Translations under genes and position numbers: made by a program
DNA from: Campylobacterales bacterium
Lineage (GTDB): Bacteria > Campylobacterota > Campylobacteria > Campylobacterales > Sulfurimonadaceae
NCBI GenBank assembly: GCA_016938735.1
Contig: JAFGUB010000008.1
Location: 62,001-126,000, forward strand
Direction of reading: 5' to 3'
Length of the DNA: 64,000 bases
The notes under the pieces: model-generated
Told to the model about the DNA's origin: nothing
Database searches by the model: none
What the model saw: the letters and a program-made list of their open reading frames with translations, nothing else
Shown here: piece by piece, positions 2,411-63,211 of the stretch
How the letters are laid out: every line of letters begins with the position of its first letter
Position numbering within the stretch: position 1 is the first letter of the stretch

Positions 2411-3178
2411 TCATGCCTCTCTTGAGAAGAGCGTACCGCTATCGTGCTTTCCTTCAATCAAAAAAGCGCGCACGGTCTGAAGATTAAAGCCGCTGGCCAA
2501 AAACATCGATCGATCATGTCGCAACATGAAGTCGGCCGCTTTGAGCTTGGTGACAATGCCGCCCGTCGCAAAAGCATGGTTGGGCGAAACCGCTTTGCCG
2601 AGCTCTTCAGGATCGATTTGGCTTACATGTAAGCGCACTACCGCATCACTGTGTTTATTGGGATCTTTATCGTAATAAGCATCGATATCCGACAAAATAA
2701 CCAGTAGCGAAGCATCAAAGTGGTGGGCGACATAAGCGGAGAGCTGATCATTGTCCCCAAGCTCCAACTCCGCCGTCGCCGTCGCGTCGTTTTCGTTGAC
2801 GATGGGAATCACGCCGTTACGCAAGAGCGTATCGATCGTATTGTTAAGCCGCTTGGCTTCTTGCGGAGTATGAAAATTGGCGGCTGTGAGCAAAATTTGA
2901 GAGGTGAGGATCTGATGCGGCTCAAACATCGTTTTGTAGCGGCGCATCAAAAGAGGCTGCCCAATAGCGGCGAGTGCCTGTTTGTTTTCAAGCACGCTTT
3001 TATCCAGTTTCAGTTCGGTATAACCCGCCGCTACAGCACCCGAAGAGACAAGGATCACGTCATAAGATTGCTTGAGTTCTGCCAAAAAATCGACCAGATT
3101 TTGCATCCGCTCTTTGGCAATGCGGTTTTGTTCCGTCAGGACGGCGCTGCCCACTTTGATAACGATACGTTTATTCAT
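2411..3178 (-). CDS. proB: Glutamate 5-kinase
   Basis: 255 residues forming only the amino-acid-kinase domain; the C-terminal PUA domain of the E. coli enzyme is absent, so this is the short form. It opens with [12 protein letters not shown] and has VSSGAVAAG (about 46-54), [18 protein letters not shown] and [12 protein letters not shown]. It phosphorylates glutamate in the first step of proline synthesis. It overlaps the obgE stop as ATGA. One TTACATGTAA copy lies inside at 2633-2642 and encodes the LHV of RLHVSQ. Confidence 0.94.
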
Positions 3179-4275
3179 CGTGCGCGGGCCACCAGTTTGA
3201 AAAGTGCAAATTTCAGTGCTTGAATATTCGTGTGCATCACTGAAGAGATCGGAGCTACGAAATAGGGCTTGGATGGGTCAAAAGGGGTGCGCTCATCCGA
3301 GAGATCGCCCTGCTCGAACAAACCCATCGCAGTATCAAAACCAAAGACAGAACCGGAGGAAGGCTCAAGCTCAAGAGCAGCGATAAACGCTGCCACCTTC
3401 TGAGCGACCTCAGAAGGATCAACCGCATCTACCCGAGTGAGCGCTATCGCAAAGGCGCTCTGCGCCAGTGTCGGAGAGAACTGTGCCAACTCATGTCGCA
3501 GGGTGGTGTACTGCTCTTCTAGCGAGCGGTAATTAGCCATATCAATCATAAAGAGCAAGGTCTTTGTGCGCTCGATATGACGCAAAAACTGCAGCCCCAA
3601 ACCGCGACCGTCACTCGCCCCTTCGATGATTCCCGGGATATCCGCCATCACAAAAGCGTCAAAATCGCCTACTTGCACCTGTCCTAGCTTGGGGGTCAGG
3701 GTTGTAAACTCGTAATCTGCGATTTCGGGTTTGGCATTGGAGACGGTCGAAATGAGCGTCGATTTGCCCACATTGGGAAAACCCACCAATCCGACATCGG
3801 CGATGAGCTTCAGATCCAGTTTGATCTCGCGTGTCTCACCCTCCTCTCCGGGTTGGGCATAGCGCGGCTGCTGATTGGTGGAGGATTTGAAGTGGACATT
3901 GCCAAGCCCCCCTTTGCCGCCGCGCAAAAAGAGCTCCTCTTGACCGTCGCGCACCATATCAAAAAGCACTTCACCGCTCTCTTTGTCGATGATCTGCGTA
4001 CCCGGCGGGACGCTGATCACCAGATGCTCTCCCGATTTTCCGGTCATATTGGAACCCATTCCGGGTTTACCGTTTTCGGCTTTAAGCTGTTTGAGCCCCT
4101 TGAAATTGGCTAGGGTATGGCTGTTATTGTCGCATTTAAACCAGACATCCCCGCCGCGTCCGCCGTCGCCGCCGTTGGGTCCGCCGTTGACCACAAACTT
4201 CTCGCGGCGAAACGCCACACAACCCGGACCGCCCTTGCCCGATGATACCGTGAGTTCGACGTAATCTGTAAACAT
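3175..4275 (-). CDS. obgE: Obg/CgtA family GTPase
   Basis: 366 residues. The glycine-rich Obg fold is at residues 1-160 ([25 protein letters not shown]). The G domain follows with [10 protein letters not shown] (G1), DIPGIIEGA (G3), LTRVD (G4) and a late switch region. It is an essential ribosome-associated GTPase for 50S maturation and stress control. Genomic neighbours rpmA and rplU, upstream on the same strand, are the classic L21-L27-Obg cluster. Confidence 0.96.
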
Positions 4276-4374
4276 GCTCTATCCTTGATTGACCCTAAAA
4301 TACTTAATGATACACTCTTACATATAAGGGTAAAAATAGACGGTTAAATATTCGATTGGAATTCATGAAGGGGT

Positions 4375-4390
4375 TTGGGCCAAAGCCCAA
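4375..4390. other. Inverted repeat between rpmA and obgE
   Basis: TTGGGC-CAAA-GCCCAA forms a 6-bp stem with a 4-base loop, 20 bp downstream of the rpmA stop. No T-run follows on the minus strand, so it is not a canonical intrinsic terminator. It could be an attenuator or a processing site between the ribosomal genes and obgE. Confidence 0.3.
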
Positions 4391-4409
4391 TCCGGTGGTG
4401 CGTTGTGTC

Positions 4410-6328: not shown

Positions 6329-7435
6329 TCAAATCTTGCAGAGAAACTTTGAGATAAAGCGCGAAAACACTTCTTTTAACATTAAAACATCTTCTGCATT
6401 GACATGCTCATTGGGTGCATGAATCGTGTTATTGCGCACCCCGAACTCTACCACGTCGATACCATAAGGGGCAATGAAACGGGCATCTGAGGTTCCGCCG
6501 GCTGTAGAGTATTTGGGTGATATACCCATTACATGTATTATGGCGGCATCGAGCGTACGTACCAAGCCTGTCTGAGCATCTGTTACAAAAGGTGCCGCGC
6601 TTTGGTCGAGATTCAAGGTAAAGTCCAATCCTTCAAGCTGACGACGTACATATGCTTCGATCGAGGCTTTGGAGGTTTTGGTTGAATTGCGTACATTAAA
6701 CATCAGTTTAAGCCGTCCCGGCGTGACGTTGGTCACCTCCATCCCCGAGCGGATGTCGGTGAGGACCATACGGCTGGGTGCAAAAAATGCATCACCGTCA
6801 TCCAGCGCAACGCCTGCGAGTGCTGTCAGTCTAGGCGCGATCAGATCAATCGGATTGATCGATTTTTCAGGATAAGCGGCGTGTCCCTGCCTGCCTCGAA
6901 TCTCGATCACACCGTTGATCGATCCGCGTCTGCCGATTTTGATCGCATCGCCGAAGCGCTCCTCACACGTCGGCTCCGCCACCACGACCGCATCAGGCAG
7001 CATGCCAATCGTCTCAAGATGCTTGAGCACCGCCACCGTTCCGTGCTTGGCAGGGCCCTCTTCATCGGAGGTAAGCAGTAGCGAGAGTGTTCCGTTAAAG
7101 CTTTGCGTCTCTTTGAGCGCCTGAGTAAAGGCGGCAACCCCGCTCTTCATATCCTGCGCCCCGCGCCCGTAAATCACCCCGTCGCGTTCAATAGGCATAT
7201 AGGGATCGCTGCTCCACCCTTCGCCGGCGGGAACCACATCGACGTGCCCCGCAAAACAGAGATGCGGCCCGTCACCGAAACAGCGATACAAAAAGAGATT
7301 TTTGACCCCCTCTTCATCGACGCGCACAACACTAAAGTCGGGTAAATAAGAGGCAATAAAATCCAAAAGTCCACCGTCATCGGGCGTTTCACTCTTACAT
7401 GTAAGCATGTACTTAAACAGTTCCAGCGTCTGCAT
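6329..7435 (-). CDS. dapE: Succinyl-diaminopimelate desuccinylase
   Basis: 368 residues from ATG 7435, five bases after GGAG; a GTG at 7441 is an alternative. M20 peptidase metal motifs are present: FAGHVDVVPAGEGW (His, Asp), TSDEEGPA (catalytic Glu-Glu) and the C-terminal HAPNEHV. It releases LL-diaminopimelate in lysine and peptidoglycan synthesis. The TTACATGTAA at 7395 gives MLTCKSE at residues 10-16, where other DapE proteins are variable. Confidence 0.95.
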   Translation of the reverse strand: MQTLELFKYMLTCKSETPDDGGLLDFIASYLPDFSVVRVDEEGVKNLFLYRCFGDGPHLCFAGHVDVVPAGEGWSSDPYMPIERDGVIYGRGAQDMKSGVAAFTQALKETQSFNGTLSLLLTSDEEGPAKHGTVAVLKHLETIGMLPDAVVVAEPTCEERFGDAIKIGRRGSINGVIEIRGRQGHAAYPEKSINPIDLIAPRLTALAGVALDDGDAFFAPSRMVLTDIRSGMEVTNVTPGRLKLMFNVRNSTKTSKASIEAYVRRQLEGLDFTLNLDQSAAPFVTDAQTGLVRTLDAAIIHVMGISPKYSTAGGTSDARFIAPYGIDVVEFGVRNNTIHAPNEHVNAEDVLMLKEVFSRFISKFLCKI

Positions 7436-8502: not shown

Positions 8503-9834
8503 CTACCGCTCGATGAGAATATGGCGCAGCCCCATGAGCTGTAAAAAGTTTTCCCCCTCTTTGACCTCAATGATCTGCGGTCGGGCGTAGCGGTAGAGTT
8601 CGGCCACCTTCGCTCCGCTCACCGCCACGTCCAGATCGGCGATAAAGGCGATCATCCGATCCAGCAGCAACAGATAGCGCCGCTCAAACAGCCGCTGCAA
8701 GGCCAAAAAACGCTCCTTGACGAGCGCCACGATCTTGAGGCGGTTACGCATGATCCGATCGGAGAGCTCATCGGTGTACTCGGAGGTGATCTTGACGTTG
8801 TTGGTCAATTTTTTGACCGTAAAGTCCTTACATGTAAGCGTTTTGCCCCCGATCTCGATGGCACACCCCTGAAAATAGGGCTCGATCAGCGACCAGCGGT
8901 TTTTGCTCACACTGATGTGATACCCTTCCTTATCGAGCATCCCCAGCGTCACATAACGCGCCTGCGACGCAGAGAGGGTCTCACCGAGCATCCCTTCCAA
9001 GGCATCCATGATGATGGCAAATTGCTGCAGCATCATCGCATTTTGATCGCTCAGAGCGTCTACCCCCACGTCCACGCCGCGTTTGAGGAAGTTCTCATCC
9101 AGCGAAGCGGTGGTGAAACGGCGGGTGGTCTCCAGATCGACACTCTTGTCGATATCGCGGATGAACTCCTCGATCTCGAACTCTCCAAAGGGGCTCTTTT
9201 GGATCTTGTGCTTTTTCAGATACGCCGTCAAATCGCGGACGCTGCAGAGTGAATCGTAAACATAGTTGATCTCAAAAGGGTGTAAACGCCCCAGTCGAAT
9301 CCGCCTTGAGAGCCGTTCCAGATCATAAATGCCGCGCAAATCCTCATCGAGCAGGCGTGTATGCGTCATCACCCGCTCAATCAAATCGTAACGGCGCAGC
9401 AGCTCGTCGCGCTCCTTGATCGGATTGAGCAGGCGTTCCTTGAGCAGACGCTTGCCGATCGCCGTTGCGCTCTTATCAAGCAGCCGCAGCACACTCGCTT
9501 CGTTGCGATGGCGAGAAAGGATGCCCAGCTGCTCGAGCGCATTGTTGCCCAGATAGACGAAGCGGCGGTTCTCAATCATCTGGGGTCTGGAGAGCTTCTG
9601 GACGATGTGGTAGTCATGCTCGACGATAAATCCGATCAAGATACAGAGCGATTCACTCACCATCGGATGACGTTCAAGATCGAGGTGCTCAATCGGCGAG
9701 AGCAGCGACTCGATCTCGTACACCTTGCCCAGCAGCTCGTTTTGATACTCGATGCGCGGACGCTCGTGGTTGACGCTGTAGGTGTAACGCTCCGCAATCT
9801 CTAGGTAGCGCAAAAGCGCCTTTTGATCATCCAC
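8503..9834 (-). CDS. MutS7 middle piece: connector, core and clamp domains
   Basis: 443 residues from a GTG codon at 9834. It contains MutS core/lever signatures (LRLLDKSATAIGKRLLKERLLNPI, near residues 105-130), clamp helices and, late, VSKNRWSLIEPYF. It ends at LRHILIER followed by TAG at 8505-8503, in the middle of the conserved motif that leads into the ATPase domain. Frame comparison shows that one extra T in the TTTT run at 9841-9844 would join it to the upstream piece as EVVLTFLDGVDDQK. It is best read as the central part of a ~990-residue MutS7. Confidence 0.85.
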   Translation of the reverse strand: MDDQKALLRYLEIAERYTYSVNHERPRIEYQNELLGKVYEIESLLSPIEHLDLERHPMVSESLCILIGFIVEHDYHIVQKLSRPQMIENRRFVYLGNNALEQLGILSRHRNEASVLRLLDKSATAIGKRLLKERLLNPIKERDELLRRYDLIERVMTHTRLLDEDLRGIYDLERLSRRIRLGRLHPFEINYVYDSLCSVRDLTAYLKKHKIQKSPFGEFEIEEFIRDIDKSVDLETTRRFTTASLDENFLKRGVDVGVDALSDQNAMMLQQFAIIMDALEGMLGETLSASQARYVTLGMLDKEGYHISVSKNRWSLIEPYFQGCAIEIGGKTLTCKDFTVKKLTNNVKITSEYTDELSDRIMRNRLKIVALVKERFLALQRLFERRYLLLLDRMIAFIADLDVAVSGAKVAELYRYARPQIIEVKEGENFLQLMGLRHILIER

Positions 9835-11284: not shown

Positions 11285-12504
11285 CAATACCCACCTCCTT
11301 GTGAAGGCTCTTTAAGTTCGAACCTTCGCCGCATCCATCCAAAATAGAGCGCCGCAACCACAAATCCGCTGCCCATAACCACCGCAATCCACTCCAGTGC
11401 GATACCCCCATCGGCCATCACGCCGATCATCATCGAAGTTCCTGCCGCGCTGAGCAAAAAGAGCATATCGTTGTAGGCCACTACGCGCCCGTAGTAGTAC
11501 TCATGGGTGTGGTGCTGCAACAGTGTGTAGGTATAAGACCAAAGCGTGGTCGTAGAGAAGCCGACCAACACCGACGCCGCCAAAGAGGCGTAAAAGTGCT
11601 CCATCACCGAAGCCCAGATCCATATCGATACGGCCTGCAGTACAAAAAGCCACACCAGCATCTTGTGGTTGATTCGCTTACCCAACCACATCGGCCCGAT
11701 CACCAAACCAAGTGCGCGTGACGCGTGCAGCAGCCCGATCGCCAAAGAAGCGGCGATGAACGACGCGTAATAGCGCTCCACCATCAGCGCCACCAAGGCA
11801 TCAAAAGCGGTCAATCCAACAAAAGCATGCAGTATCAGCAGATAAAACACAACGGGGTTTTCCCGCATGTAGCGGATCGTATCCCCCATCATCGTCATCA
11901 AGTCAAGATGGTGCGCTTGCTGCTTTACATGTAATGACAAAGGGAACAAAAGTATCAAGCCGACCATAAACAACAGCGCATCGATCACGAATGCCGTCCG
12001 CACGCCGACCTGATAGACCACCAAACCACTGACGGCCATACCGACGGTATAAGAGAGCGACCAGATAATAGAGTGAATCTCATTGGCGGCCTGCAGATCC
12101 GCTCCGTTTAAAATTCTGGGTAACAGCGCCATCTCAAGCGTAAAATAGAAGCTAGACGCTGCCATCCGCACAAAAATCAGCAGATACAGCAGCCACAAAT
12201 GCTCAGCCTCCGTCACCATCAGCAGCATCAGCGTCGTCATGATCTCGACGCTCAAAAGCAGCACCATCACCCGCTTAGGCTCAAAACGATCAATCAGCGC
12301 ACCGGTAAAGGGAGCCTGAAGCACTCCGGGCAAAAAATGCATCACCGCCGTCAGCGCGATGACGGTCGCCGAAACACCCATCTCAAGCAGCAGCGTGTAG
12401 ATCGCCACATTGGTAAACCAAGCGCCGAAATAGGCCAAAAGCTGAATCTGACTAAGCCGACGCAAAATGGCGTGTTGTGATAAAAGATGCAGATAGCGGT
12501 TCAT
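11284..12504 (-). CDS. MFS transporter
   Basis: 406 residues with about 12 hydrophobic segments and the MFS loop GALIDRFEPKRVM near residue 68, an acidic/basic motif A variant. The layout resembles enterobactin-exporter-like (MFS_3) efflux proteins. Substrate unknown. A TTACATGTAA at 11925 encodes the LHV of LSLHVKQ in the central cytoplasmic loop, a place that tolerates change. The start faces the divergent flaG promoter. Confidence 0.85.
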   Translation of the reverse strand: MNRYLHLLSQHAILRRLSQIQLLAYFGAWFTNVAIYTLLLEMGVSATVIALTAVMHFLPGVLQAPFTGALIDRFEPKRVMVLLLSVEIMTTLMLLMVTEAEHLWLLYLLIFVRMAASSFYFTLEMALLPRILNGADLQAANEIHSIIWSLSYTVGMAVSGLVVYQVGVRTAFVIDALLFMVGLILLFPLSLHVKQQAHHLDLMTMMGDTIRYMRENPVVFYLLILHAFVGLTAFDALVALMVERYYASFIAASLAIGLLHASRALGLVIGPMWLGKRINHKMLVWLFVLQAVSIWIWASVMEHFYASLAASVLVGFSTTTLWSYTYTLLQHHTHEYYYGRVVAYNDMLFLLSAAGTSMMIGVMADGGIALEWIAVVMGSGFVVAALYFGWMRRRFELKEPSQGGGY

Positions 12505-14936: not shown

Positions 14937-14958
14937 GCGTTACATGTAAGGAGAGACC

Positions 14959-15675: not shown

Positions 15676-15719
15676 CCTTACATGTAACGCATCCCCCACT
15701 AACACTACAAAGGTTAAAC

Positions 15720-16166
15720 ATGAAAGTATTACTTATTAAAGACGTCCCCTCTCTTGGCAAAGCCGGAGAGATCAAAGAGGTCAAAGACGGCTACGGCAAA
15801 AACTTCCTTATCGGCAAAGGCTTTGCCAAACACGCCACAACAGAGGTACTTGAAGCACACAAAGCCGAAGAGGCACGCAAAGCCGAAGCCTTAGCAAAAG
15901 AGATCGCCGATCTTAAAGCACTGGCGGCAAAGCTGGACAAAATGGGCATCAAGATTCACAAGAAGTTAGGCGATACGGGGCATCTTTTCGGCTCCGTCAC
16001 CAAAGAGGAGATCGCCCACGCCCTGCAAGAGCAGCATCACGTCGAGATCGACAAAAAACATATCGACATCAAAAATCCGATCAAAACGGTCGGTCTGCAC
16101 GATCTTGATCTGAAGCTCGGCCACGGCATCCATGCCACCTTACATGTAACGGTTGTCGGCGACTGA
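15720..16166 (+). CDS. rplI: 50S ribosomal protein L9
   Basis: 148 residues: [18 protein letters not shown] and the [13 protein letters not shown] block of the N-terminal domain, a long charged connecting helix (45-80), then the C-terminal rRNA-binding domain. The TTACATGTAA at 16140 encodes LHVTV at the extreme C-terminus. It overlaps the hslV start by one base. Confidence 0.97.
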
Positions 16167-18926: not shown

Positions 18927-19882
18927 AGTTTTTTGTAGCGATATGCATGTTTTACGCCCTCTATGCCACTGAAGAGCCGGCGCTGATCTATCAGGCACAG
19001 GGAGTCGAAGCGCTCACCCAAGCACTTGATCGTGAACTGGCCGGCAAAGCATTCTGGGAGCGGCACTTAAATACTCTTGATACTACCTACGGCTATCTCG
19101 AAGGCCGTGATGCATTGCTTACATGTAATAAAAAAGAGGGCAAGCTCTATTATCATAAACGACAAAACAATGGCAGCTTCAAAACCTTACTTCAATATGA
19201 TGCGCTTTTAGGCAAATCCACCGGTGACAAGCAGATCGAAGGAGACCATAGAACCCCTATCGGCATCTACACGCTAACCCAAAAACTCGATAAACTCGAC
19301 CCCTATTACGGCCCGTTGGCCTATGTCACCTCTTATCCCAACCTTTTTGACCGCATTCGGGGCAAAAACGGTTCCGGAATCTGGATTCACGGAGTACCTG
19401 AAAACACGCTTCGTGAAACGGCGACCAAAGGGTGTATTGCATTAGAAAACAGCGACCTTCGTACACTAGATGCAACACTTGACATGAAGCATACCTTGCT
19501 TGTCATTGATGAAGAGGTCAAAATAGATATTGACAAGGAGCAACTCGCCACTCTTTTAAGCCAGCTTTTTGCATGGCGCCTTGCATGGCTGAACAATGAT
19601 CTTGAAAGCTACCTCTCTTTCTACGATGCACGTTTCAAACGCTTTGACGGAAAAGACCTCGATGCTTTTAGGGCTTACAAAAAGCGCATTTTTGCTAAGG
19701 ACGAGCCTAAGACTATCTACTTTAGTAACGTAGCGGTTTTGCCCTACCCAGGTGAAGAATCCGATCGCTACTTGATCACATTTCACGAAAGATACTTTGC
19801 GAGCTCATATCAGTTCGAAGGTGAAAAAACATTGATCACAACACTTGAAAACGCAAAAATGCGTATCATTGCGGAACAATAG
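18920..19882 (+). CDS. Csd6/Pgp2-like L,D-carboxypeptidase (YkuD fold)
   Basis: 320 residues with a short signal peptide (1-16). A YkuD catalytic domain spans about 70-200 with DHRTPIGIYTLT, then GIWIHGVP and the catalytic TKGCIAL. The C-terminal third resembles the NTF2-like domain of Helicobacter Csd6. In Helicobacter and Campylobacter this enzyme trims peptidoglycan tetrapeptides to tripeptides and sets helical cell shape. TTACATGTAA at 19119 gives LLTCNKK. This is the last exact palindrome before an 11.7 kb gap. Confidence 0.82.
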   Translation: MVKFFVAICMFYALYATEEPALIYQAQGVEALTQALDRELAGKAFWERHLNTLDTTYGYLEGRDALLTCNKKEGKLYYHKRQNNGSFKTLLQYDALLGKSTGDKQIEGDHRTPIGIYTLTQKLDKLDPYYGPLAYVTSYPNLFDRIRGKNGSGIWIHGVPENTLRETATKGCIALENSDLRTLDATLDMKHTLLVIDEEVKIDIDKEQLATLLSQLFAWRLAWLNNDLESYLSFYDARFKRFDGKDLDAFRAYKKRIFAKDEPKTIYFSNVAVLPYPGEESDRYLITFHERYFASSYQFEGEKTLITTLENAKMRIIAEQ

Positions 19883-35618: not shown

Positions 35619-35658
35619 GATTTCTCCTTACATGTAAATTTGGCGTACTATAGCAGAC

Positions 35659-46161: not shown

Positions 46162-47466
46162 TTATTCCCCCCGTAGCTGATAGGTGATATCGCCGGCGCC
46201 AAAGCCGACGATGAGCCCCCTCTTGAGACTGTGCGCCATTGTATCATCTTTGTACACTTCCAGCGCCTCTTCGACGCGCACCAGATGATCGGCCTGCACC
46301 AGATCGTAATGCGCGAACGCCGTTGCGAAGTCGATATCGCGCACTGCCTCGCCCGCCGCCCACACAGGCAAGATGATAAGCCGATCCGCCCCCTCGAAGC
46401 AGGTGCGAAAGGCATCAAGGTTATCGACGGTGCGCGAATATTTGTGCGGCTGCCAGATGGCGGTGATGCCCTCTAAGCCCCGCAGCGCGGCGAAGGTTTT
46501 AACCGCCTCCATCGTCGCCTTGATCTCGGTGGGGTGGTGGCCGTAGTCGTCGATGATGACGCAATCGCCGCTGTCGCTGAGGATATCAAAACGCTTTTTG
46601 ATCCCCTTGTAGTCCAGCAAACGCGCCCTAATCGTCTCGATCTCCACACTTGGCATCGCCGCTAAAATCGCCAGCGCCGCGTCAAGTGCGATATGCGCCC
46701 CAAAACCCCACACCTCAAAAACGCCCAGATCCAGCAGCTCAAAACGGGTATGCGGTTCGCCCTCAATGAGCACATACTCGATATTGCGGATATCGGTGCT
46801 CGGATAGAGCCGCTCGGCCTTACATGTAAGGCTACTCAAAAAAGGATCTTCGGCGTTGAGGATGCGCAGCGGCGCGTTTTCGATGAACTGTTTGTAGGAG
46901 CCGTAAAAGAGCACTTCGTCATAGCCGTAGTACTCCATGTGTTCGGGTTCGGCGTTGGTAACGATGGCGCAGTAGGCGTTGGCGTTGAGAAAGCTGCCGT
47001 CGCTCTCGTCGGCTTCGAAGATGAGCACGTCGCTCTCATTGCAGTAGCGTACATTCGAGCCAAAAGCCTTGGACTCCGCGCCGATGATCGCCGAGCCGTG
47101 CATCAGTTCAGAGAGAATCGCCGACGTCGTGCTTTTGCCGTGCGCCCCCGCCACCGCGTAGACTTTTGAATCGTGCAAAATCTCTAGCAGCGCTTCGCGT
47201 CTTGGAATCACGCGAATCCCCCGTGCTTTGGCCTCAAGTACTTCGGGATTGTCCGCTTTGATGATGGCCGAATGGATCACACAATCGGGATCTTTGATGT
47301 TTTGAGCGCATTGGGGAATCGTTACATGTAAGCCCTCTGCTTCAAGCTTGTGGGTAATGTGCGATTCACGAATGTCCGAACCGCTCACCTGATGACCGCG
47401 ATAATGCATATACTTGGCCAGCCCGCTGATGCCGATGCCGCCGATGCCGATAAAATGGTATTTCAA
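46162..47466 (-). CDS. murC: UDP-N-acetylmuramate--L-alanine ligase
   Basis: 434 residues: N-terminal UDP-binding GIGGIGISGLAKYMHYRGHQVSGSD, ATP loop AGAHGKSTTSA near 108, ADESDGSF and EPEHMEYYG, then IIDDYGHHPTEIKAT. It adds L-Ala to UDP-MurNAc in the cytoplasm. Two TTACATGTAA copies, at 46820 (LTCKAERL) and 47322 (LHVTIPQ), lie in this gene. Confidence 0.95.
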   Translation of the reverse strand: MKYHFIGIGGIGISGLAKYMHYRGHQVSGSDIRESHITHKLEAEGLHVTIPQCAQNIKDPDCVIHSAIIKADNPEVLEAKARGIRVIPRREALLEILHDSKVYAVAGAHGKSTTSAILSELMHGSAIIGAESKAFGSNVRYCNESDVLIFEADESDGSFLNANAYCAIVTNAEPEHMEYYGYDEVLFYGSYKQFIENAPLRILNAEDPFLSSLTCKAERLYPSTDIRNIEYVLIEGEPHTRFELLDLGVFEVWGFGAHIALDAALAILAAMPSVEIETIRARLLDYKGIKKRFDILSDSGDCVIIDDYGHHPTEIKATMEAVKTFAALRGLEGITAIWQPHKYSRTVDNLDAFRTCFEGADRLIILPVWAAGEAVRDIDFATAFAHYDLVQADHLVRVEEALEVYKDDTMAHSLKRGLIVGFGAGDITYQLRGE

Positions 47467-47972: not shown

Positions 47973-49101
47973 TCAGACACTCCCGTATGCGCAAAAGTGC
48001 TTCGCGTGTATTGGCCTCACTCTCTACCAATGCGATACGCACAAAGCCCTCGCCCGGATTGACCCCCTCGCATTCGCGCCCCAAAAATGCCCCCGGCAAC
48101 ACTTTCACGTTGTAACGCTCATAAAGCTTACATGTAAAGGCCAGCGCATCATCCACCTCCAGCCAGACATAAAAGGTCGCTTCAGAGGGGGTGACTCCTA
48201 AAATCTCCTCGGCCAAAGCGGCGTTGGCGCGGTAGACGGCGCGCGCCTCTTCAACATGCACGTCATCGCGCCACGCGCTTGCGGCGGCGTACTGCAGCGG
48301 CAGGGGTGACGCCGCGCCGATGTAGGTGCGGTAGCGCCCATACGCCGATAGAATCTGCGCGTCTCCGGCGATAAAGCCCGAGCGCAGCCCCGGAGCGCTG
48401 GAGCGTTTGGAGATGGAGTTGATCACCAGCACGTTTTTAAAGTCGCTGTTGCCTACATGTAAGGCTGCTTCAAGGAGTGAGGGCGGCGGATTTTGAGTGT
48501 AGATTTCGCTGTAGCACTCATCATTGAGCAGCACAAAATCGTGCTTGAGTGCCAGCTTCACCCACGCGCCAAGCTCATCAAGAGTGAGCGTCGATCCCGT
48601 GGGGTTGTTGGGGAAGTTTAAAATCACCAGATGGCACGAGGCGAGCGCGGCCTCATCCACTTCGGGCTTGAAGTGCCGCTCTTTGGTGAGGTTGATGTGC
48701 AGCACCTGCGCGCGCGAAGCGATGGCCGCACCTTCGTAGATCTGGTAAAAAGGGTTGGTGTAGGCCATTTTGGGCGCGGTTTTGTCATACAGATAAAACT
48801 GCGGAAAGTTAAAGAGCACTTCGCGGGTGCCGAAGGTGGGGATGAGCTGCTGAGGCAGAAGCTCCACGCCAAAACGCCGCGATACAAACTCAACCATCGC
48901 TTCGCGCAAGGCGGTTTCGCCCGCCGTTTTGGGGTAAAAACGCAGCTGCGGCGCGGCGTTGCACAGCGCTTTTTGGATGAATGAAGGGGTCTCAAACTGC
49001 GGCTCGCCGATGGTGAGGCTCAGCGGCGCATAGTCGCTACTTGGCACGATGGGCGCCAGCAGATCGGATAGTTTTTCAAATGGGTAGGGTTGGAAGGTCA
49101 T
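47962..49101 (-). CDS. Class I/II aminotransferase, probably succinyl-DAP aminotransferase
   Basis: 379 residues from ATG 49101 with AAGAG upstream; ATG 49116 is an alternative. PLP lysine in NSISKRSSAPGLRSGF near 235, FPNNPTG near 160, LNDECYSEI near 195. The short DapC-like form is used in Campylobacterota, and dapE in this window would act on the product. TTACATGTAA at 48128 encodes FTCKLYE. Confidence 0.82.
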   Translation of the reverse strand: MTFQPYPFEKLSDLLAPIVPSSDYAPLSLTIGEPQFETPSFIQKALCNAAPQLRFYPKTAGETALREAMVEFVSRRFGVELLPQQLIPTFGTREVLFNFPQFYLYDKTAPKMAYTNPFYQIYEGAAIASRAQVLHINLTKERHFKPEVDEAALASCHLVILNFPNNPTGSTLTLDELGAWVKLALKHDFVLLNDECYSEIYTQNPPPSLLEAALHVGNSDFKNVLVINSISKRSSAPGLRSGFIAGDAQILSAYGRYRTYIGAASPLPLQYAAASAWRDDVHVEEARAVYRANAALAEEILGVTPSEATFYVWLEVDDALAFTCKLYERYNVKVLPGAFLGRECEGVNPGEGFVRIALVESEANTREALLRIRECLNER

Positions 49102-49845: not shown

Positions 49846-50963
49846 GCAGGAAACTCCATGCGGTAGTGGTAGGGTTTGGGATCGTGCATAAAAAGGGTGC
49901 CGTGAAGCTGCTCAAGGGTGAGTTTGACGAGGCTGAGTCCCAGCGTGTCATCGCAAACAGGCAGCGCATGCGTGTCGCCGCTGTCGCTGTAGTGCAAAAT
50001 GCAGCTTTCGTCTTTACATGTAAGCGCCATTGCCACGCTACAGGTGCCGTTCTGGCAGGCATATTTGATGGAGTTGGTGAGCAATTCATTGATGATGATG
50101 CCCAGCCTAATCGTCTTTTCGAGCTCAAAGGTGGCATCGTCGCTATGAAACTTCAGCGTCACCTCCTTCTCTTTTCCCGCTGCCACAAGTGCCTGCTCGG
50201 CAAGCTGTCTGACATAGGTGCCAAAATCGACGGCTTCAAGGTTGCCGCTGCGATAAAGCGTTTCGTGCGCCAGCGAGATGGACTCGATGCGCAGCCGGTT
50301 CTGATCGATAATGCGGTCAATATCGGGATGGTTGGTCTCGAGCTTCTGCAAGCCCAGAATGGAGCTGATGATGTTGAGATTGTTCTTGATACGGTGGTGG
50401 ATCTCTTTGAGCAAAATCTCCTTTTCACGATTGGCTTTTTCGAGTTTGCGGTGCGACTCTTCGATGGCGTAGTTATAAAAAATCCCAAAAGCCAAAACAA
50501 AGAGCGAAGCGATGAAATACGAAGCCAAAGCCCGATCATCGTGTAAAAACGGATGCCCTTCATACCGATAAAATCCCTGCACAAAAAGAGCGGCAAGCAC
50601 CGCATAATACAGCGACATATTGATCAGAATTTCGCGCGGCGGCATCAAGATAAACGCCACGACGGGCAGCAGCAGCGTAAACATAATACTCATATTGAAG
50701 GCGTTGTGATAGACAAAGAGAAACACGATGGCGCTTGCCGTCCAATAGATGGCGCGCGCGGCTATTTTGTGGTTGCGACTCTGCAAAAAGTACCACAAAA
50801 ACCCCACCCCTACCGCCACAAAAAGCAGATCAAGCCAGAGGTCGAAATCGTTGGCGATCATAAGATCAATAAATGCTGCAATAGAGGTGATGGTGATAAA
50901 ACTGAGGTAAAACCCGATAAGAAACAACTCTTTGTAATGAAACTGCTTAAGCCATGTTTGCAT
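49842..50963 (-). CDS. Membrane histidine kinase of the HisKA_2 type
   Basis: 373 residues. About six membrane helices in residues 15-165 serve as the sensor part. The phospho-acceptor is His in LLKEIHHRIKNNLNIISSILGLQ near 192-195, the HisKA_2 signature, followed by LAHETLY and an ATPase domain with IGIIINELLTNSIKYA (N box) and a short GLSLVKLTLEQL. TTACATGTAA at 50014 encodes ALTCKDE. Signal unknown. Confidence 0.88.
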   Translation of the reverse strand: MQTWLKQFHYKELFLIGFYLSFITITSIAAFIDLMIANDFDLWLDLLFVAVGVGFLWYFLQSRNHKIAARAIYWTASAIVFLFVYHNAFNMSIMFTLLLPVVAFILMPPREILINMSLYYAVLAALFVQGFYRYEGHPFLHDDRALASYFIASLFVLAFGIFYNYAIEESHRKLEKANREKEILLKEIHHRIKNNLNIISSILGLQKLETNHPDIDRIIDQNRLRIESISLAHETLYRSGNLEAVDFGTYVRQLAEQALVAAGKEKEVTLKFHSDDATFELEKTIRLGIIINELLTNSIKYACQNGTCSVAMALTCKDESCILHYSDSGDTHALPVCDDTLGLSLVKLTLEQLHGTLFMHDPKPYHYRMEFPA

Positions 50964-53937: not shown

Positions 53938-55668
53938 ATGAGTCCGATTTGGCTTTTGCTTTTGCCGCTTGTCGCTGCCGCAGGGGTGCGTTATGGCACG
54001 CGACCGCTTGGCGTGATTGGCGTGTTTTGGCTTCTTAGCTCTTTGATTGCGATGACGCTTCAAGAGGCGCTGATTGGCATCCACGCGTCGTGGCTGGATT
54101 GGCCTATCGCTTTGGCGGATGTGGGGTTGTTGCTCTTTTTTGCCTACGTGGGGCGCAATGAAGGCGACGTGCGCGTTTTTGGCCTTGCGATTGTGCAAAT
54201 GCTCTTGTTTGTTTTGATCGAACTCTTCGGCGCACACGCTGAGGGGGCCACCTTCCTCATCGACGACGCGTCGCGCATGATGCTCTTTATCGTCAACGTC
54301 GTCGGCGGTGCCATCGTCTACTACGCCCATGCGTATATGCGCTTTGAGCAGGGCGATGCGAAGCGCTTTTTGATCTATCTGCTGCTCTTTATTGCCGTCA
54401 TGAACGCCATCGCAATGAGCAACCATCTGATGCACTTCTTCTTCTTTTTTGAGCTCACCACCCTCTTTTCGTACCTGCTCATTCGCTACCGCCTCGATGA
54501 GACGGCCAAGGCCAACGCCCTGAGAGCGCTCTGGATGAACCAGATCGGCGGCATCGCGCTTCTGATCGCGGCGCTGGTGGCTTCAAGCAGCTTTGACACC
54601 CTCTACCTTGATGCGCTCACACAACATGCAGGCGGCGCGGCGGTGATGATCGCCGTCTTTGTGGCGCTTGGGGCCATGATCAAAGGCGCGGCCATGCCTT
54701 TTCAAAGCTGGCTGCTGGGTGCGATGGTCGCCCCTACGCCTGTGAGCGCCATCTTGCACTCCGCCACCATGGTCAAGCTTGCTCCCTTTATGGTGCTTAA
54801 AATCGCCGCGCTCTTACATGTAAGCTTTGCCGGAGCGCTCATTAGCCTCTTTTCGATGGCGGTTTTTGTCTACGCCTCGTTTCTCGCACTCTCCAAAACC
54901 TCACTCAAGGAGATTTTGGGGCTTTCCACCATCGCCTTGCTGGCACTCATGGTCTCTCTCGCGGCTACGGGCGAAGAGCGTGCGCGGGAGATCGTACTCA
55001 TGCTGATCCTCTTTCACGCCCTCTCCAAAGCCCTGCTCTTCTTGGTCGCGGGGGTGCTGGAAAAACACTTCCACCTCAAAGATATCGAAGATATGGCGGG
55101 GCTGATCTATCAAGCCCCCCGCAGTGTGGCGCTGCTCGTCTTTGGCTTTTTAAGCCTGAGCGTTCCGCCTTTTGGGCTGCTGCTGGGGAAGCTCTTTGCG
55201 CTGATCTTTTTGGCGCAGATGATGCAAGAGCAGAGCTGGGCGCTCGCGCTGCTGCTGCTTGCCGCGCTGGGCTCAACCCTGCTCGCACTACTCTATTTTC
55301 GGCTGCTTAGCCACCTGCTCTCGCGCAGCGGCGAACGTGCGGCGATGGCGCATGAGACGATCGGCTGGGGTTTTGGCGTGCCCATTGCGGCGCTCTCGCT
55401 TTTGAGCGTGGTGCTGAGCCTTGGCTACTTTTATGACGCGTTCGGGCTTGGCGCACTCCTTGCCACCCTCGCACTGCTCGTAGTGTCCGCCCTGACTCTG
55501 CGCTCTTTTGCCAAGGTTGAGCGGGTCAAAGAGTATGCCTGCGGCGAACGCGCCCCCTTTGTCGGAGCGCTGGCGTATTACACTTTAAGCGAAGCGTATA
55601 CGGCCAAGTTTATTCAGGGTTTTGGCCTCTTCTTTGGCTTGATCGCCCTCGCGGGGGTGCTCTCATGA
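53938..55668 (+). CDS. Group 4 hydrogenase proton-pump subunit (EchA/HyfB/NuoL-like)
   Basis: 576 residues, about 14-16 membrane helices. Complex I antiporter-like core: a Glu in FFFFELTTLFSYLLI near 180, then GAMIKGAAMPFQSWLLGAMVAPTPVSAILHSATMVK near 245-280 with the conserved Lys and His. Residues past 520 lack the long lateral helix arm of NuoL. It couples H2 chemistry to ion movement. First of six genes in Ech order. TTACATGTAA at 54814 encodes LLHVSFA. Confidence 0.88.
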   Translation: MSPIWLLLLPLVAAAGVRYGTRPLGVIGVFWLLSSLIAMTLQEALIGIHASWLDWPIALADVGLLLFFAYVGRNEGDVRVFGLAIVQMLLFVLIELFGAHAEGATFLIDDASRMMLFIVNVVGGAIVYYAHAYMRFEQGDAKRFLIYLLLFIAVMNAIAMSNHLMHFFFFFELTTLFSYLLIRYRLDETAKANALRALWMNQIGGIALLIAALVASSSFDTLYLDALTQHAGGAAVMIAVFVALGAMIKGAAMPFQSWLLGAMVAPTPVSAILHSATMVKLAPFMVLKIAALLHVSFAGALISLFSMAVFVYASFLALSKTSLKEILGLSTIALLALMVSLAATGEERAREIVLMLILFHALSKALLFLVAGVLEKHFHLKDIEDMAGLIYQAPRSVALLVFGFLSLSVPPFGLLLGKLFALIFLAQMMQEQSWALALLLLAALGSTLLALLYFRLLSHLLSRSGERAAMAHETIGWGFGVPIAALSLLSVVLSLGYFYDAFGLGALLATLALLVVSALTLRSFAKVERVKEYACGERAPFVGALAYYTLSEAYTAKFIQGFGLFFGLIALAGVLS

Positions 55669-57016: not shown

Positions 57017-57338
57017 AAACGTGGTCGAGACGATCAAGGCTTTTTACAACCCCGCAGCGCACCACTTTCTCACCCTCAATGCCCTCAATGCGCCCGATGA
57101 CTCCATTGAGCTGGAGTGGATCTTCACCCGTTACGGCGTCATTGACGAACCGACGGTGTTTACCCTTACATGTAAGCGTGACGTGCTGATTCCCTCCGTG
57201 ACCTCCTTCATCCCCTCGGCCATCATGAGTGAGCGCGAGACGGTGGATATGTTCGGCGTCAGCATCGAAGGGGCCAAGCGCGGGCTCTACCTCGATGAAG
57301 ACTCACGTGAAATGCCACTAGGGAGATGCAGAGTATGA
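56991..57338 (+). CDS. Group 4 hydrogenase NuoC-like subunit (EchD type)
   Basis: 115 residues from ATG 56991, inside the end of the small-subunit gene with GGAGG upstream. The NuoC/30-kDa signature is SFIPSAIMSERETVDMFGVSIEG near 80-100. TTACATGTAA at 57166 encodes TLTCKRD. ATGA overlap with the large-subunit gene. Confidence 0.88.
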   Translation: MNKITVNLENVVETIKAFYNPAAHHFLTLNALNAPDDSIELEWIFTRYGVIDEPTVFTLTCKRDVLIPSVTSFIPSAIMSERETVDMFGVSIEGAKRGLYLDEDSREMPLGRCRV

Positions 57339-58420
57339 AAAAGACCGTCGAAATCCCGCTGGGATCGCAGCATATCTCGCTGCTTGAGCCGATCCGCTTT
57401 CGCTTCCACTGCGAAAACGAAGTGATCCGCGACGTCGATGCCGACGTGGGCTTTGTGCATCGCGGGGTCGAAGAGGCGTGCGCGAGTCGTTTTGAGTTCA
57501 AGCAAGTCGGCTACGTGGTGGCGCGGGTCTGCGGACTGTGCGCCATCACCCACTCGCTGGGCTACACGCTGGCGGTGGAGAAGCTCTTACATGTAGAGAC
57601 TTCGATGCGCATCAAATACCTGCGGATGCTGATGGTGGAGCTGGATCGCATCCACTCGCACATGCTCTGCCTCGCACACACTGCTGAAAATGCGGGCTTT
57701 GAAGCGCTTTTTATGCAGATCATGAATGAGCGTGAGCTGGTTATGGACGTGCAAGAAGCGCTCAGCGGCAACCGCGTGCAGTTTGACTACATCAGCATCG
57801 GCGGCGTCAACCGCGACCTCAGTGCGCAAGCGGGCGCGCTGGTGCTGCGCAATCTCTCCTTGCTGGAGCCAAAAATCGATGAGCTCTTTGAGCGCTTCAC
57901 AAGCAACTGGAGCCTTTCACTCAAGTATCGCGGCATCGGGGCGCTGAGCCTAACGCAGGCGTACATGTACAACACCCTCGGGCCGCTGGCGCGCGCGGCG
58001 GGGCTAGAAACCGACGTGCGGCTGGAGACGAATGACTTCCCCTACGCGCAGATCGGCTTTGAGATCATCACGGAGCAAGGCGGCGATATTTACGCGAGAA
58101 ACCTCGTGCGTCTGCGTGAGATCAAACAGTCGATAAAGATGGTGCGCCACATCATCGAAGGGCTGCCCGAAGGGGCGATTCAGGAAAAAACCAAAGGCAA
58201 GCCCGAAGGCGAAGCCATTGTGCGCATAGAGGCCCCCAGAGGTGAGCTGATGTATCTGGTACGCGGCAACAAGAGCAGCATTTTAGAGCGCGTGCGGATC
58301 AAAACCCCCACCTTCTCAGGCATCCCCGCCATGATCGAGATCTTCAAAGGGAGCAACTTCGCCGACGCACCGGCGATTTTGGCCTCGTTTGATCCGTGCA
58401 TGAGCTGTACGGCAAAGTGA
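57335..58420 (+). CDS. Group 4 [NiFe] hydrogenase large subunit (EchE/HyfG/CooH-like)
   Basis: 361 residues from ATG 57335, chosen for its ATGA overlap and GGAG spacing. Both nickel-iron ligand pairs are present: RVCGLCAITHS near 63 and DPCMSCTAK at the very C-terminus. The protein stops right after the second pair, so there is no removable tail, a state known for some group 4 enzymes. Both pairs being intact argues for a true hydrogenase rather than a complex I subunit. A one-mismatch palindrome lies at 57587. Confidence 0.93.
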   Translation: MKKTVEIPLGSQHISLLEPIRFRFHCENEVIRDVDADVGFVHRGVEEACASRFEFKQVGYVVARVCGLCAITHSLGYTLAVEKLLHVETSMRIKYLRMLMVELDRIHSHMLCLAHTAENAGFEALFMQIMNERELVMDVQEALSGNRVQFDYISIGGVNRDLSAQAGALVLRNLSLLEPKIDELFERFTSNWSLSLKYRGIGALSLTQAYMYNTLGPLARAAGLETDVRLETNDFPYAQIGFEIITEQGGDIYARNLVRLREIKQSIKMVRHIIEGLPEGAIQEKTKGKPEGEAIVRIEAPRGELMYLVRGNKSSILERVRIKTPTFSGIPAMIEIFKGSNFADAPAILASFDPCMSCTAK

Positions 58421-59255: not shown

Positions 59256-59295
59256 CAGAGACCATGTTGCGATTTGCTTACATGTAGTCGTTTTT

Positions 59296-59413
59296 TTCTC
59301 GTTCCCAACGTCCCCGCTGGGAACGTATATGAAAGCTTACATGTAAAGAACGTATCATGATCGCCAAAAGAGAAAAAAGTATGCGTTCCCAAGCTGGAGC
59401 TTGGGAACGAGGA
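59296..59413 (+). repeat. Direct repeat, copy 1, with two hairpins around TTACATGTAA
   Basis: 118 bp. A left hairpin (GTTCCCAACG...CTGGGAAC), a central AGCTTACATGTAAAGAA, and a right hairpin (TTCCCAAGCTGGAGCTTGGGAA). A second copy lies at 59949-60065 in the same orientation, flanking the gene at 59471-59800. The right hairpin resembles short repeats I recall from unrelated bacteria; not verified. Confidence 0.85.
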
Positions 59414-59948: not shown

Positions 59949-60065
59949 TTCTCGTTCCCAACGTCTTCGTTGGGAAGTCATATGAAAGCTTACATGTAAA
60001 GAATGTATGATGAGCGCCAAAAGAGAAAAAGTATACATTCCCAAGCTGGAGCTTGGGAACGAGGA
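59949..60065 (+). repeat. Direct repeat, copy 2
   Basis: 117 bp, same plan as copy 1 with scattered changes in both hairpins (GTCTTCGT loop instead of GTCCCCGC; CATTCCC for CGTTCCC). The TTACATGTAA is kept exactly at 59990-59999. It occupies part of the 400-bp stretch between 59800 and 60202; the rest holds nothing I recognise. Confidence 0.85.
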
Positions 60066-60930: not shown

Positions 60931-61195
60931 GCCAAAAAATCTTCTTTACTCCAATGGCGTGGGAAGAGTACCTCTCATGACATAGTGAGGACAAAAAACA
61001 CGCAAACGCATCAACCAACTCTTAGCCGACATTATGCGCAACGGCACCCAAGGTATCGGCAAGCCTGAAAGACTCAAAGGTGATCTGTCGGCATATTGGA
61101 GCCGCCGAATAGATGACAAAAATCGCATTGTCTACCGTATCCTTGAAGAGGTAATCGAAGTAGTACAGTGCAAAACACACTACGCGGATCAATAG
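60927..61195 (+). pseudogene. YoeB-type toxin gene, broken
   Basis: Begins MSQKIFFTPMAWEEYLS, then TGA at 60978 where YoeB has Trp (TGG), then HSEDKK. One A is missing from the A-run at 60993-60998; restoring it joins KRINQLLADIMRNG and GIGKPERLKGDLSAYWSRRI plus IVYR...CKTHY, which hold the YoeB catalytic region. So the gene has a nonsense change and a -1 frameshift. The antitoxin remains intact. Confidence 0.85.
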
Positions 61196-61278
61196 AAACA
61201 AATCCTTACATGTAAAGAGCGACGGACGCACCGCCTCAACCGAAAACACGCTACAATCAGCCCCAAAAAGGAGCCTAA

Positions 61279-61989
61279 ATGAACCCGTCCGAAGCCAAAA
61301 CCGCCCTGCTTGAAGCGAGCGCCTTTCGCCATGCCTGCAAACTTTTTGACCCCCAAAAACCCATCAGTGACGACAATATGGGCTTTTTGCTCGAAATCGC
61401 CAGACTCTCGCCCACCTCGTTTGGGATGCAGGGGGTGCGGCTCATCGTCATCACCGATCCTGCGCTCAAAGCCGCATTAAAACCCGCCTGCTGGAACCAA
61501 AACCAGATCGACACTTGCAGCCACCTCATCGCCCTAACCACCCGCACCGCCGACTTAGAGCCTTATAGCGACTGGGTCAAGGCGCGTTTTGGTGATCGCG
61601 GGCTGAGCGCCGAGCAAGAAGCGGCGTACAACGACAAATACAACGCCTTTCACCAAGACCTCAAAACACGCATCGAAGGCTTGTTTAAACCGCGCGTCAT
61701 CGGCTTTTTTTACTGGCTCTTTCACAAAAACCGCACGCCCAAAGAGCTTTATGAGTGGGGCGCACGCCAGTGCTACATCATCCTTGGCAACCTCATGAGC
61801 GCCGCCGCCGCCATTGGCATCGACTCTTGCCCGATTGAGAGTTTTGAGAAAAACAGAGTAGAGGAGATTTTGGCGCTCGATACGCAGCGCGAAGAGGTCG
61901 CGGTGCTCTGCGCTCTGGGCTACCGCGCAGGCGCGCAACCACCCAAACTGCGGCTGCCACTTGAGGCCATCACGGAGTTTAGAAGCTGA
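61279..61989 (+). CDS. Nitroreductase-family protein
   Basis: 236 residues: EASAFRHACKLFDPQKPISDDNMGFLLEIARLSPTSFGMQGVRLIVI at the start and GNLMSAAAAIGIDSCPIESFEK near 170 match FMN-dependent NfsB-like enzymes. Likely a flavin NAD(P)H oxidoreductase. AAGGAG ribosome site and TACAAT -10. Overlaps the convergent rlmI end by 11 bases. Confidence 0.9.
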   Translation: MNPSEAKTALLEASAFRHACKLFDPQKPISDDNMGFLLEIARLSPTSFGMQGVRLIVITDPALKAALKPACWNQNQIDTCSHLIALTTRTADLEPYSDWVKARFGDRGLSAEQEAAYNDKYNAFHQDLKTRIEGLFKPRVIGFFYWLFHKNRTPKELYEWGARQCYIILGNLMSAAAAIGIDSCPIESFEKNRVEEILALDTQREEVAVLCALGYRAGAQPPKLRLPLEAITEFRS

Positions 61990-63154
61990 TTTTTCGCAGC
62001 ACCACACCGCTAAGGTAGTCGGTGTTGGGGATCGAGAGGATGTAGGGGTGATCCGCGTCGGCGCGCAGCAGCTCCAGCACTTCAAGCATCACCCCCTCTT
62101 GGGTGCCTACATGTAAGGCCAAAGTGAGCAACTCGCCGATACCTACATGGTGCGAACATGAAAAGAGCGCCACGATCCCCTGATCTTCGAGTATCTTCAC
62201 CGCCGAAGCAAGCAAAAAGCCCATCCCCTTCATCGCCCCCTCCACCTCGCGCTTGGTTTTGGCAAAAGGGGGCGGATCGAGCACGATCAGATCATAACGC
62301 GTAGCGCTTGCGACCTGAGCCTCCATGAAGTCAAAAGCGTCTGCCTTGGTGATGGTCTGCGGCGCGAAGCCGTTACATGTAAGGTTTTGCGCTACCTGGA
62401 CGAGCGCACTGTCGCTCATATCCACAAAATGGACACTCGCCCCTTCGCGCAGGGCGTGCAGCCCAAAACCGCCCGCGTTGCAAAAGCAATCCAGCACGCG
62501 CATACCGCCGCGCACATAACCCGAGACGACATGACGGTTGCGGCGCTGATCGAGGTAAAATCCGGTCTTTTGCCCCGCGTGCAGATCCACCTCGAAAGCG
62601 ACGCCGCGCTCTTGCATCACCACGCGCTGCGGCACTTCGCCCCAAATCACGCCGCCGGCGCTCTCAAGACCCTCTTTGCGGCGCATCTTGGCATCGGACT
62701 TTTCGATGATCCCTTTGGGCTGGGCAACGGCAATAAGCGCATCGATGATCCAAGGGCGCAGGCGCTCCATCCCCAGCGTGTTGATCTGCAAGGAGAGATA
62801 ACCGTTGTAATAATCCACCATGAGTCCGGGCAACATATCGGCTTCGGCGTGGACGATGCGGTAAGCATTGCTTTGGCGTGCCAGATCGCTGCGCTTGTGC
62901 CATGCGCGCTCTATACGCTGAGCCATAAACGCCGCGTCGATGCTACGCTCCTCAAACGACAAAACGCGTACCGTAATCTCGCTTGCGCCGTTGTAGTAAC
63001 CGATGCCCAAAAATGCGCCGCCGTGAGATTCGATGCGCACCCTATCACCGTCTTGGATCGCCTCGTCGTACGCGGCTATTTCGTTTCGGTAGACCCAACA
63101 AAAACGGCTCTGGAGTTTATGGCTTGAGGCTTTGGTAACGCGAAGGGTATGCAT
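61979..63154 (-). CDS. rlmI: RlmI-like 23S rRNA (cytosine-5) methyltransferase
   Basis: 391 residues from ATG 63154 with AAAGAG upstream. An N-terminal PUA domain (1-75), the RlmI middle domain with DMLPGLMVDYYNGYL, the SAM motif VLDCFCNAGGFGLHA near 218, VLDPPPFAK near 290 and the catalytic FSCSHHV. It methylates C1962-type sites. TTACATGTAA at 62373 encodes LTCNGF and another copy at 63173 precedes the ribosome site. Confidence 0.9.
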   Translation of the reverse strand: MHTLRVTKASSHKLQSRFCWVYRNEIAAYDEAIQDGDRVRIESHGGAFLGIGYYNGASEITVRVLSFEERSIDAAFMAQRIERAWHKRSDLARQSNAYRIVHAEADMLPGLMVDYYNGYLSLQINTLGMERLRPWIIDALIAVAQPKGIIEKSDAKMRRKEGLESAGGVIWGEVPQRVVMQERGVAFEVDLHAGQKTGFYLDQRRNRHVVSGYVRGGMRVLDCFCNAGGFGLHALREGASVHFVDMSDSALVQVAQNLTCNGFAPQTITKADAFDFMEAQVASATRYDLIVLDPPPFAKTKREVEGAMKGMGFLLASAVKILEDQGIVALFSCSHHVGIGELLTLALHVGTQEGVMLEVLELLRADADHPYILSIPNTDYLSGVVLRKISF

Positions 63155-63211
63155 GGGACTCTTTACATGTAAGGGATTGCGGTCAAAAAACCGCGTTGAA
63201 AGCATATCAAG

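What the first reader, a model, noticed from the sequence alone, without database searches (positions are those of the whole stretch)
2633..63182. A 10-bp palindrome, TTACATGTAA, repeated 29 times in 64 kb
I count 29 exact copies; random expectation for one 10-mer in 64 kb is about 0.06. At least eleven more differ by one base. The surrounding bases favour C before and G after, and nine copies are the full 12-mer CTTACATGTAAG. Some extend to 16-18 bp (34740-34757, 45944-45959, 46817-46832). About a third of copies are between genes although most of the window is coding. It is not a terminator: no T-run, and most copies are inside genes. It fits the idea of a highly iterated palindrome such as HIP1 of cyanobacteria, but I know of no description of this sequence. 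Possible roles: binding site for a nucleoid or repair protein, a methylation-linked site, an uptake sequence, or a self-spreading mark.
Basis: seen in the sequence. Interest (0 to 1): 0.85.

Follow-up and report, generated by a model that had tools for sequence, protein, structure and literature searches.

The report
Iterated palindrome tied to solitary methyltransferase
A ten-letter palindrome, TTACATGTAA, is stamped about a thousand times through the genomes of Sulfurospirillum and related bacteria, kept almost letter-perfect by evolution and linked to a lone DNA-methylating enzyme; it may be a label by which these bacteria recognise their own DNA, but that role is untested.

Summary
Observation confirmed and extended. 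The window has 29 exact copies (shuffles: 0.03); the genome has 1061 in 2.85 Mb, against 0 for the reversed word. The host is an unnamed member of Campylobacterales. Of 399 genomes of that order, only two families carry the excess (Sulfurospirillum: up to 1496). The core TACATGTA has few one-base errors, and sites keep their position between species 80% identical (8 of 10; about 1 expected). Copies lie in and between genes, evenly around the chromosome.

Best reading: a HIP1-like label linked to a solitary D12 adenine methyltransferase of the CATG lineage. HIP-rich genomes carry a distinct clade of this enzyme with no restriction gene beside it. Three Sulfurospirillum genomes without it have fewer, decaying sites; three other genomes keep sharp sites without it, so the link is strong but not absolute. 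MutL is absent, so the mismatch-repair ratchet proposed for HIP1 cannot apply. The likeliest role, inferred only, is recognising self DNA for uptake, as C. jejuni does with methylated RAATTY; an intracellular reader is the main rival. No description of this sequence turned up in the open-access library searched.

The parts
2623..2632 (.). TTACATGTAA copy 1
7395..7404 (.). copy 2
8828..8837 (.). copy 3
11925..11934 (.). copy 4
14940..14949 (.). copy 5 (intergenic)
15678..15687 (.). copy 6 (intergenic)
16140..16149 (.). copy 7
19119..19128 (.). copy 8
30827..30836 (.). copy 9
30961..30970 (.). copy 10
34283..34292 (.). copy 11, inside the valyl-tRNA synthetase gene; conserved exactly in G001
34744..34753 (.). 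copy 12 (intergenic, 18-bp palindrome); conserved in G001
35628..35637 (.). copy 13 (intergenic); not present in G001
39221..39230 (.). copy 14 (intergenic)
39708..39717 (.). copy 15 (intergenic)
40048..40057 (.). copy 16; conserved in G001
41594..41603 (.). copy 17
45947..45956 (.). copy 18 (16-bp palindrome); conserved in G001
46820..46829 (.). copy 19 (16-bp palindrome); conserved in G001
47322..47331 (.). copy 20; conserved in G001
48128..48137 (.). copy 21
50014..50023 (.). copy 22
54814..54823 (.). copy 23
57166..57175 (.). copy 24 (intergenic)
59337..59346 (.). copy 25 (intergenic)
59990..59999 (.). copy 26 (intergenic)
61206..61215 (.). copy 27 (intergenic)
62373..62382 (.). copy 28
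63163..63172 (.). copy 29
1635..1644 (.). core variant CTACATGTAA
6529..6538 (.). core variant TTACATGTAT
26196..26205 (.). core variant TTACATGTAT (in the pilus operon)
27023..27032 (.). core variant ATACATGTAG (in the pilus operon)
35182..35191 (.). core variant TTACATGTAG
37272..37281 (.). core variant TTACATGTAG
42546..42555 (.). core variant TTACATGTAG
48453..48462 (.). core variant CTACATGTAA
51855..51864 (.). core variant TTACATGTAG
57587..57596 (.). core variant TTACATGTAG
57961..57970 (.). core variant GTACATGTAC
59278..59287 (.). core variant TTACATGTAG
62107..62116 (.). core variant CTACATGTAA
20040..29355 (+). [quoted passage not shown] the kind of machine that takes up DNA in C. 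jejuni. Candidate reader apparatus; that it belongs to the system is inferred only
   Evidence: role by analogy from PMC10046745

Best explanation
TTACATGTAA is a highly iterated palindromic label of the HIP1 type, not a repeat element or a regulon. SHOWN: it is genome-wide, sharp, conserved in position, evenly spread, and limited to two families of Campylobacterales. SHOWN: most HIP-rich genomes carry a particular clade of solitary D12 N6-adenine methyltransferase (in this genome between recO and an Rrf2 regulator). INFERRED: that enzyme methylates the A of the central CATG, because close relatives sit beside IceA/NlaIII-type (CATG) restriction genes. [quoted passage not shown] Sites would then also accumulate by transformation with labelled DNA.
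For: Genome count 1061 vs 0 control; phyletic distribution. Strict core: 263 TACATGTA vs 3-4.5 expected, and only 16 core one-base variants against 151 exact copies. Positions conserved at 8/10, 5/6, 5/6 and 5/6 where 8-23% is expected. Solitary methyltransferase clade: all 25 tree rows come from genomes with at least 264 copies; support 92/97, fork drawn open. Two HIP-poor genomes have their homologue beside IceA. In Sulfurospirillum, genomes with the enzyme have median 1127 copies, without 412, p=0.0007. Three no-enzyme genomes show decay: 22 near-misses vs 13 exact. Even chromosomal spread, index of dispersion 0.87; fewer sites in low-GC 5-kb stretches. Uptake reading: ComEC in 42 of 42 genomes; pilus/secretion operon in the window; C. 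jejuni precedent (PMC8468864, PMC10046745, PMC4294202); a sister species (G019) carries a non-palindromic iterated word TGGCGTTT instead, 693 copies vs 13 control.
Against: G222 (934 copies), G134 (567) and G168 (340) are nearly complete, have sharp sites and no detectable D12 enzyme, so this enzyme is not strictly required there. G004 has a solitary homologue and only 2 copies; G029 has one and 48 copies. No methylome, no binding protein and no competence data for these hosts were found. ComEC is universal and so does not discriminate. Known uptake sequences are not palindromes (PMC1939737). The pilus operon was not compared directly with the C. jejuni cts genes.
Confidence: 0.42

Rival explanations
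1. The label is read inside the cell: a repair, recombination, replication or nucleoid protein binds TTACATGTAA, with methylation at CATG as a strand or state mark (HIP1-like, intracellular function).
For: Palindromic symmetry suits a dimeric DNA-binding protein; even spread around the chromosome; position conservation; pairs of sites spaced 20-23 bp, about two helical turns, are in excess, 40 of 90 vs 15.7 expected; sites persist in genomes without the methyltransferase.
Against: No such protein found; patchy distribution within genera and decay in some lineages show it is dispensable; lower density in low-GC, probably foreign, stretches is equally expected of an uptake label.
Confidence: 0.3
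2. Mutational ratchet or molecular drive without function: a biased repair or gene-conversion process linked to methylation creates and preserves the word (Elhai's model for HIP1).
For: Solitary methyltransferase association; deviations confined to outer bases as in HIP1.
Against: The published model needs MutS/MutL; no MutL at the family cut-off in 24 of 24 genomes, while 11 of 14 control genomes pass it. Sites persist without the enzyme in three genomes.
Confidence: 0.1
3. Transcription terminators or regulatory operators: the palindrome and its pairs act in RNA or bind a transcription factor.
For: Density 5-fold higher between genes (1.35 vs 0.255 per kb); in G109 densest between convergent genes and just after stop codons; some close pairs form extended hairpins.
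Against: 109 of 151 copies lie inside genes; a T-run follows only 3 of 40 pairs; about 1000 copies is far too many for a regulon; flanks show no extra complementarity beyond base preference.
Confidence: 0.08
4. Chromosome-organising site of the matS / SlmA / Noc type, placed relative to origin and terminus.
For: Palindromic binding sites of such systems are known (general knowledge).
Against: Even distribution over the whole chromosome of G109, 8-14 per 20 kb in 18 of 20 samples, no broad origin or terminus gap.
Confidence: 0.04

Closest known systems
HIP1 (GCGATCGC) and alternate HIPs of cyanobacteria (Elhai 2015, PMC4390886)
   Same: Genome-wide short palindrome, in and between genes; linked to solitary methyltransferase(s) of an internal sequence; one-off variants at first/last base and avoided at the centre.
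   Different: AT-rich (20% GC) against mostly GC-rich HIPs; Campylobacterota; about 372 per Mb (10-mer) or 575 per Mb (core) against 1000-2000 per Mb; no MutL, so the proposed repair ratchet cannot apply.
Methylation-dependent DNA uptake of Campylobacter jejuni (CtsM, RAATTY)
   Same: Same bacterial order; D12-class solitary adenine methyltransferase; palindromic target; a type II secretion/pilus machine is encoded.
   Different: RAATTY is a short 6-mer with about 27,500 sites (PMC4294202), not an iterated 10-mer; the Campylobacter-like D12 enzymes are only distant relatives of this clade (E about 1e-46 to 1e-57; that these are CtsM is not verified); uptake untested here.
DNA uptake sequences (Neisseria DUS, Pasteurellaceae USS)
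   Same: About 1000-2000 copies per genome, over-represented in and more so between genes, some inverted pairs.
   Different: DUS/USS are not palindromes and, to my knowledge, are not tied to a methyltransferase.
CATG restriction-modification (NlaIII, HpyI/IceA1)
   Same: The methyltransferase belongs to the same D12 lineage.
   Different: No restriction gene beside it in HIP-rich genomes; CATG itself is not over-represented.

Membership tests
HIP class (HIP1-type iterated palindromes) | Short palindrome grossly over-represented genome-wide | tested here: met
   1061 vs 0 control; 151 vs about 0.2 in 458 kb
HIP class (HIP1-type iterated palindromes) | Present inside and between genes | tested here: met
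   109 genic, 42 intergenic
HIP class (HIP1-type iterated palindromes) | Genome encodes a methyltransferase for an internal sequence | tested here: inconclusive
   D12 enzyme of the CATG lineage present in most HIP-rich genomes, absent in three; specificity inferred, not measured
HIP class (HIP1-type iterated palindromes) | One-off variants mainly at the outer bases | tested here: met
   97 outer vs 16 core variants; HIP1 pattern
HIP class (HIP1-type iterated palindromes) | GC-rich and cyanobacterial | tested here: not met
   20% GC; Campylobacterales. These describe the known members rather than define the class
DNA uptake sequence (DUS/USS) | Sequence-specific stimulation of DNA uptake | not testable with these tools
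   needs a transformation assay
DNA uptake sequence (DUS/USS) | Non-palindromic word | tested here: not met
   perfect palindrome
DNA uptake sequence (DUS/USS) | Host encodes DNA-uptake machinery | tested here: met
   ComEC in 42/42; secretin, T2SSE and T2SSF operon in the window; not discriminating
CtsM-type methylated uptake mark | Solitary D12 adenine methyltransferase | tested here: met
   PF02086, no restriction gene beside it
CtsM-type methylated uptake mark | Methylation at the site is required for uptake | not testable with these tools
   needs methylome and uptake assays
CATG restriction-modification system | Cognate restriction gene linked to the methyltransferase | tested here: not met
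   none beside it in G000, its HIP-rich relatives or Sulfurospirillum; IceA present in HIP-poor G019 and G130
Chromosome-organising sites (matS, SlmA, Noc) | Skewed distribution relative to ori/ter | tested here: not met
   even over 20 samples of G109

The most novel reading that the evidence does not exclude
A palindromic, methyltransferase-written self label for DNA uptake in Sulfurospirillum and relatives: a first palindromic iterated uptake sequence, and a HIP outside cyanobacteria with a definable role, where sister species have swapped labels (TTACATGTAA in G168, TGGCGTTT in G019 of the same genus).
Probability: 0.33. Interest if true: 0.87.

Novelty: new variant of a known kind. Interest (0 to 1): 0.74.

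Why it matters
The function of HIP1 has been open since the 1990s. Here is an independent iterated palindrome in culturable, fully sequenced bacteria, in an order where methylation-dependent DNA uptake is established, with natural losses of the enzyme and natural decay of the sites. MutL absence already removes one leading model. That makes 'what are iterated palindromes for?' directly testable, and it suggests that solitary methyltransferases derived from restriction-modification systems can reshape a whole genome's word content.

Tried and rejected
PF01555 methyltransferases do not track the palindrome. ComEC presence does not discriminate. Elhai's mismatch-repair ratchet: rejected, MutL absent. 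Terminator reading: no T-runs, most copies genic. Macrodomain reading: even distribution. Flank extension as a real hairpin: flank complementarity no greater than base preference gives. PDB search found no solved relative of the methyltransferase at the thresholds used. Literature: no paper found for TTACATGTAA as an iterated bacterial word; the original CtsM paper is not held, so CtsM is cited through later papers.
Full report
OBSERVATION. The window holds 29 exact TTACATGTAA (shuffles 0.03). In 458 kb of the same genome there are 151 against about 0.2 expected, and the core TACATGTA is the most over-represented 8-mer: 263 against 4.5 under a third-order model. The whole 2.85-Mb assembly has 1061, while the reversed word AATGTACATT has none.

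FORM. One-base variants of the 10-mer are common only at the outermost base (97), and rare at the other four half-site positions (16 in all, none at the central A). Preferred flanks in this genome are C (then C or G) before and G (then G or C) after; in G109 the element is TTTACATGTAAA and even the outer T/A of the 10-mer is strict. Inside genes it is read as Leu-His-Val or as (Leu/Phe/Val/Ile)-Thr-Cys-(Lys/Asn); the third frame contains a stop and occurs almost only at gene ends. Density is 0.255 per kb in genes and 1.35 per kb between them, using a simple ORF model rather than curated genes.

HOST AND DISTRIBUTION. Named genomes with closely paired copies are Sulfurospirillum species (diekertiae, cavolei, arcachonense and others) and unnamed Campylobacterales MAGs. 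One relative, G020, has the same matches and contig coordinates as the genome of the record 'uncultured Helicobacteraceae RB_MAG_00011'. G180's contig length, 2,814,086, is that of S. diekertiae JPD-1. Calling G109 S. deleyianum, G211 S. multivorans and G242 S. barnesii rests on genome lengths I recall, not on a tool result. In 399 genomes of the order only the window's family (f1) and the Sulfurospirillum family (f20) have the excess; the other families have 0-11. Within these two families the count runs from none to about 1500.

MAINTENANCE. Between the window's genome and G001 (about 80% identical) 8 of 10 sites are exact in both, against about 12% expected; three Sulfurospirillum pairs give 5 of 6 where 8-23% is expected. 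More distant pairs keep fewer. Sites are spread evenly over the G109 chromosome. Stretches of lowest GC, which by base composition should have more of this AT-rich word, have fewer: in the lowest tenth 1.1 core sites per 5 kb in this genome against 2.9 overall, and 0.9 against 2.7 in G109.

METHYLTRANSFERASE. Every HIP-rich genome first tested, except one incomplete one (G032) and one MAG (G063), carries a PF02086 (D12) adenine methyltransferase beginning M(N/H)YIGSK with intact DPPY and FAG motifs. In the window's genome it lies at G000:C43:32612-33598 between recO and an Rrf2 regulator, with one copy of the palindrome near its start and another overlapping its stop codon. In Sulfurospirillum it sits beside a transglutaminase-fold protein gene or sensor/regulator genes. 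No restriction gene is adjacent. In a tree of 56 such enzymes, 25 from HIP-rich genomes of both families form one group (92/97, fork drawn open, so treat as likely); other members are mostly from HIP-poor genomes, two of which have an IceA (NlaIII-type, CATG) gene beside them. From this I infer CATG as the methylated core. CATG as a whole is not enriched (1909 vs 2200 expected), so a CATG enzyme alone cannot explain the 10-mer: a reader of the longer word, or an extended enzyme specificity, is needed.

TEST BY LOSS. In the genus g37 (Sulfurospirillum) 17 genomes with the enzyme have median 1127 copies and 7 without have 412 (p=0.0007; not corrected for phylogeny; two of the seven are incomplete). 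Three without it (G278, G158, G372) show decay: 22 core near-misses against 10.3 expected and only 13 exact, in 173 kb. So the enzyme is associated and probably contributes, but it is not indispensable on this time scale.

MECHANISM. MutL is absent in 24 of 24 genomes, which removes the methyl-directed mismatch-repair ratchet proposed for HIP1 (PMC4390886). C. jejuni, same order, takes up only DNA methylated at RAATTY by CtsM (PMC8468864, PMC10046745); the RAATTY enzyme is a D12 adenine methyltransferase (PMC4294202). The window itself carries a secretin/T2SSE/T2SSF operon of the type used for uptake, and ComEC is universal. A sister species, G019, lacks the palindrome but has a sharp non-palindromic word TGGCGTTT, 693 copies against 13. 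Together these favour a self-DNA uptake label, at about 0.4; an intracellular reader (repair, replication, nucleoid) is the main rival at about 0.3.

LIMITS.

Noticed in passing
G019 (L193-L197); also G377, G505, G258: Non-palindromic 8-mer TGGCGTTT/AAACGCCA is iterated: 693 copies in G019 vs 13 for the reversed control; G377 349 vs 85, G505 321 vs 58, G258 254 vs 91. It has a sharp core and is mostly in genes; looks like an uptake-signal-type word in the same genus that elsewhere carries TTACATGTAA.
   Followed up: partly
[quoted passage not shown] only two core variants inside.
   Followed up: partly
L001, L003, L008, L038, L051 and others: Close pairs of the palindrome are concentrated at 20-23 bp spacing (40 of 90 vs 15.7 expected), often with inward complementary bases such as TTACATGTAAgg-n-ccTTACATGTAA and no T-run after them.
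   Followed up: partly
G055:C2:1692-2660 (L153): A second, divergent D12 methyltransferase sits on a 39.9-kb contig of a HIP-rich Sulfurospirillum, next to genes that look by eye like an IS21-type transposase pair.
   Followed up: no
f11 genomes (e.g. L257 in G411): Most listed genomes of the Campylobacter-like family f11 have a distant D12 homologue of about 370 aa (E about 1e-46 to 1e-57); possibly CtsM, not verified.
   Followed up: no
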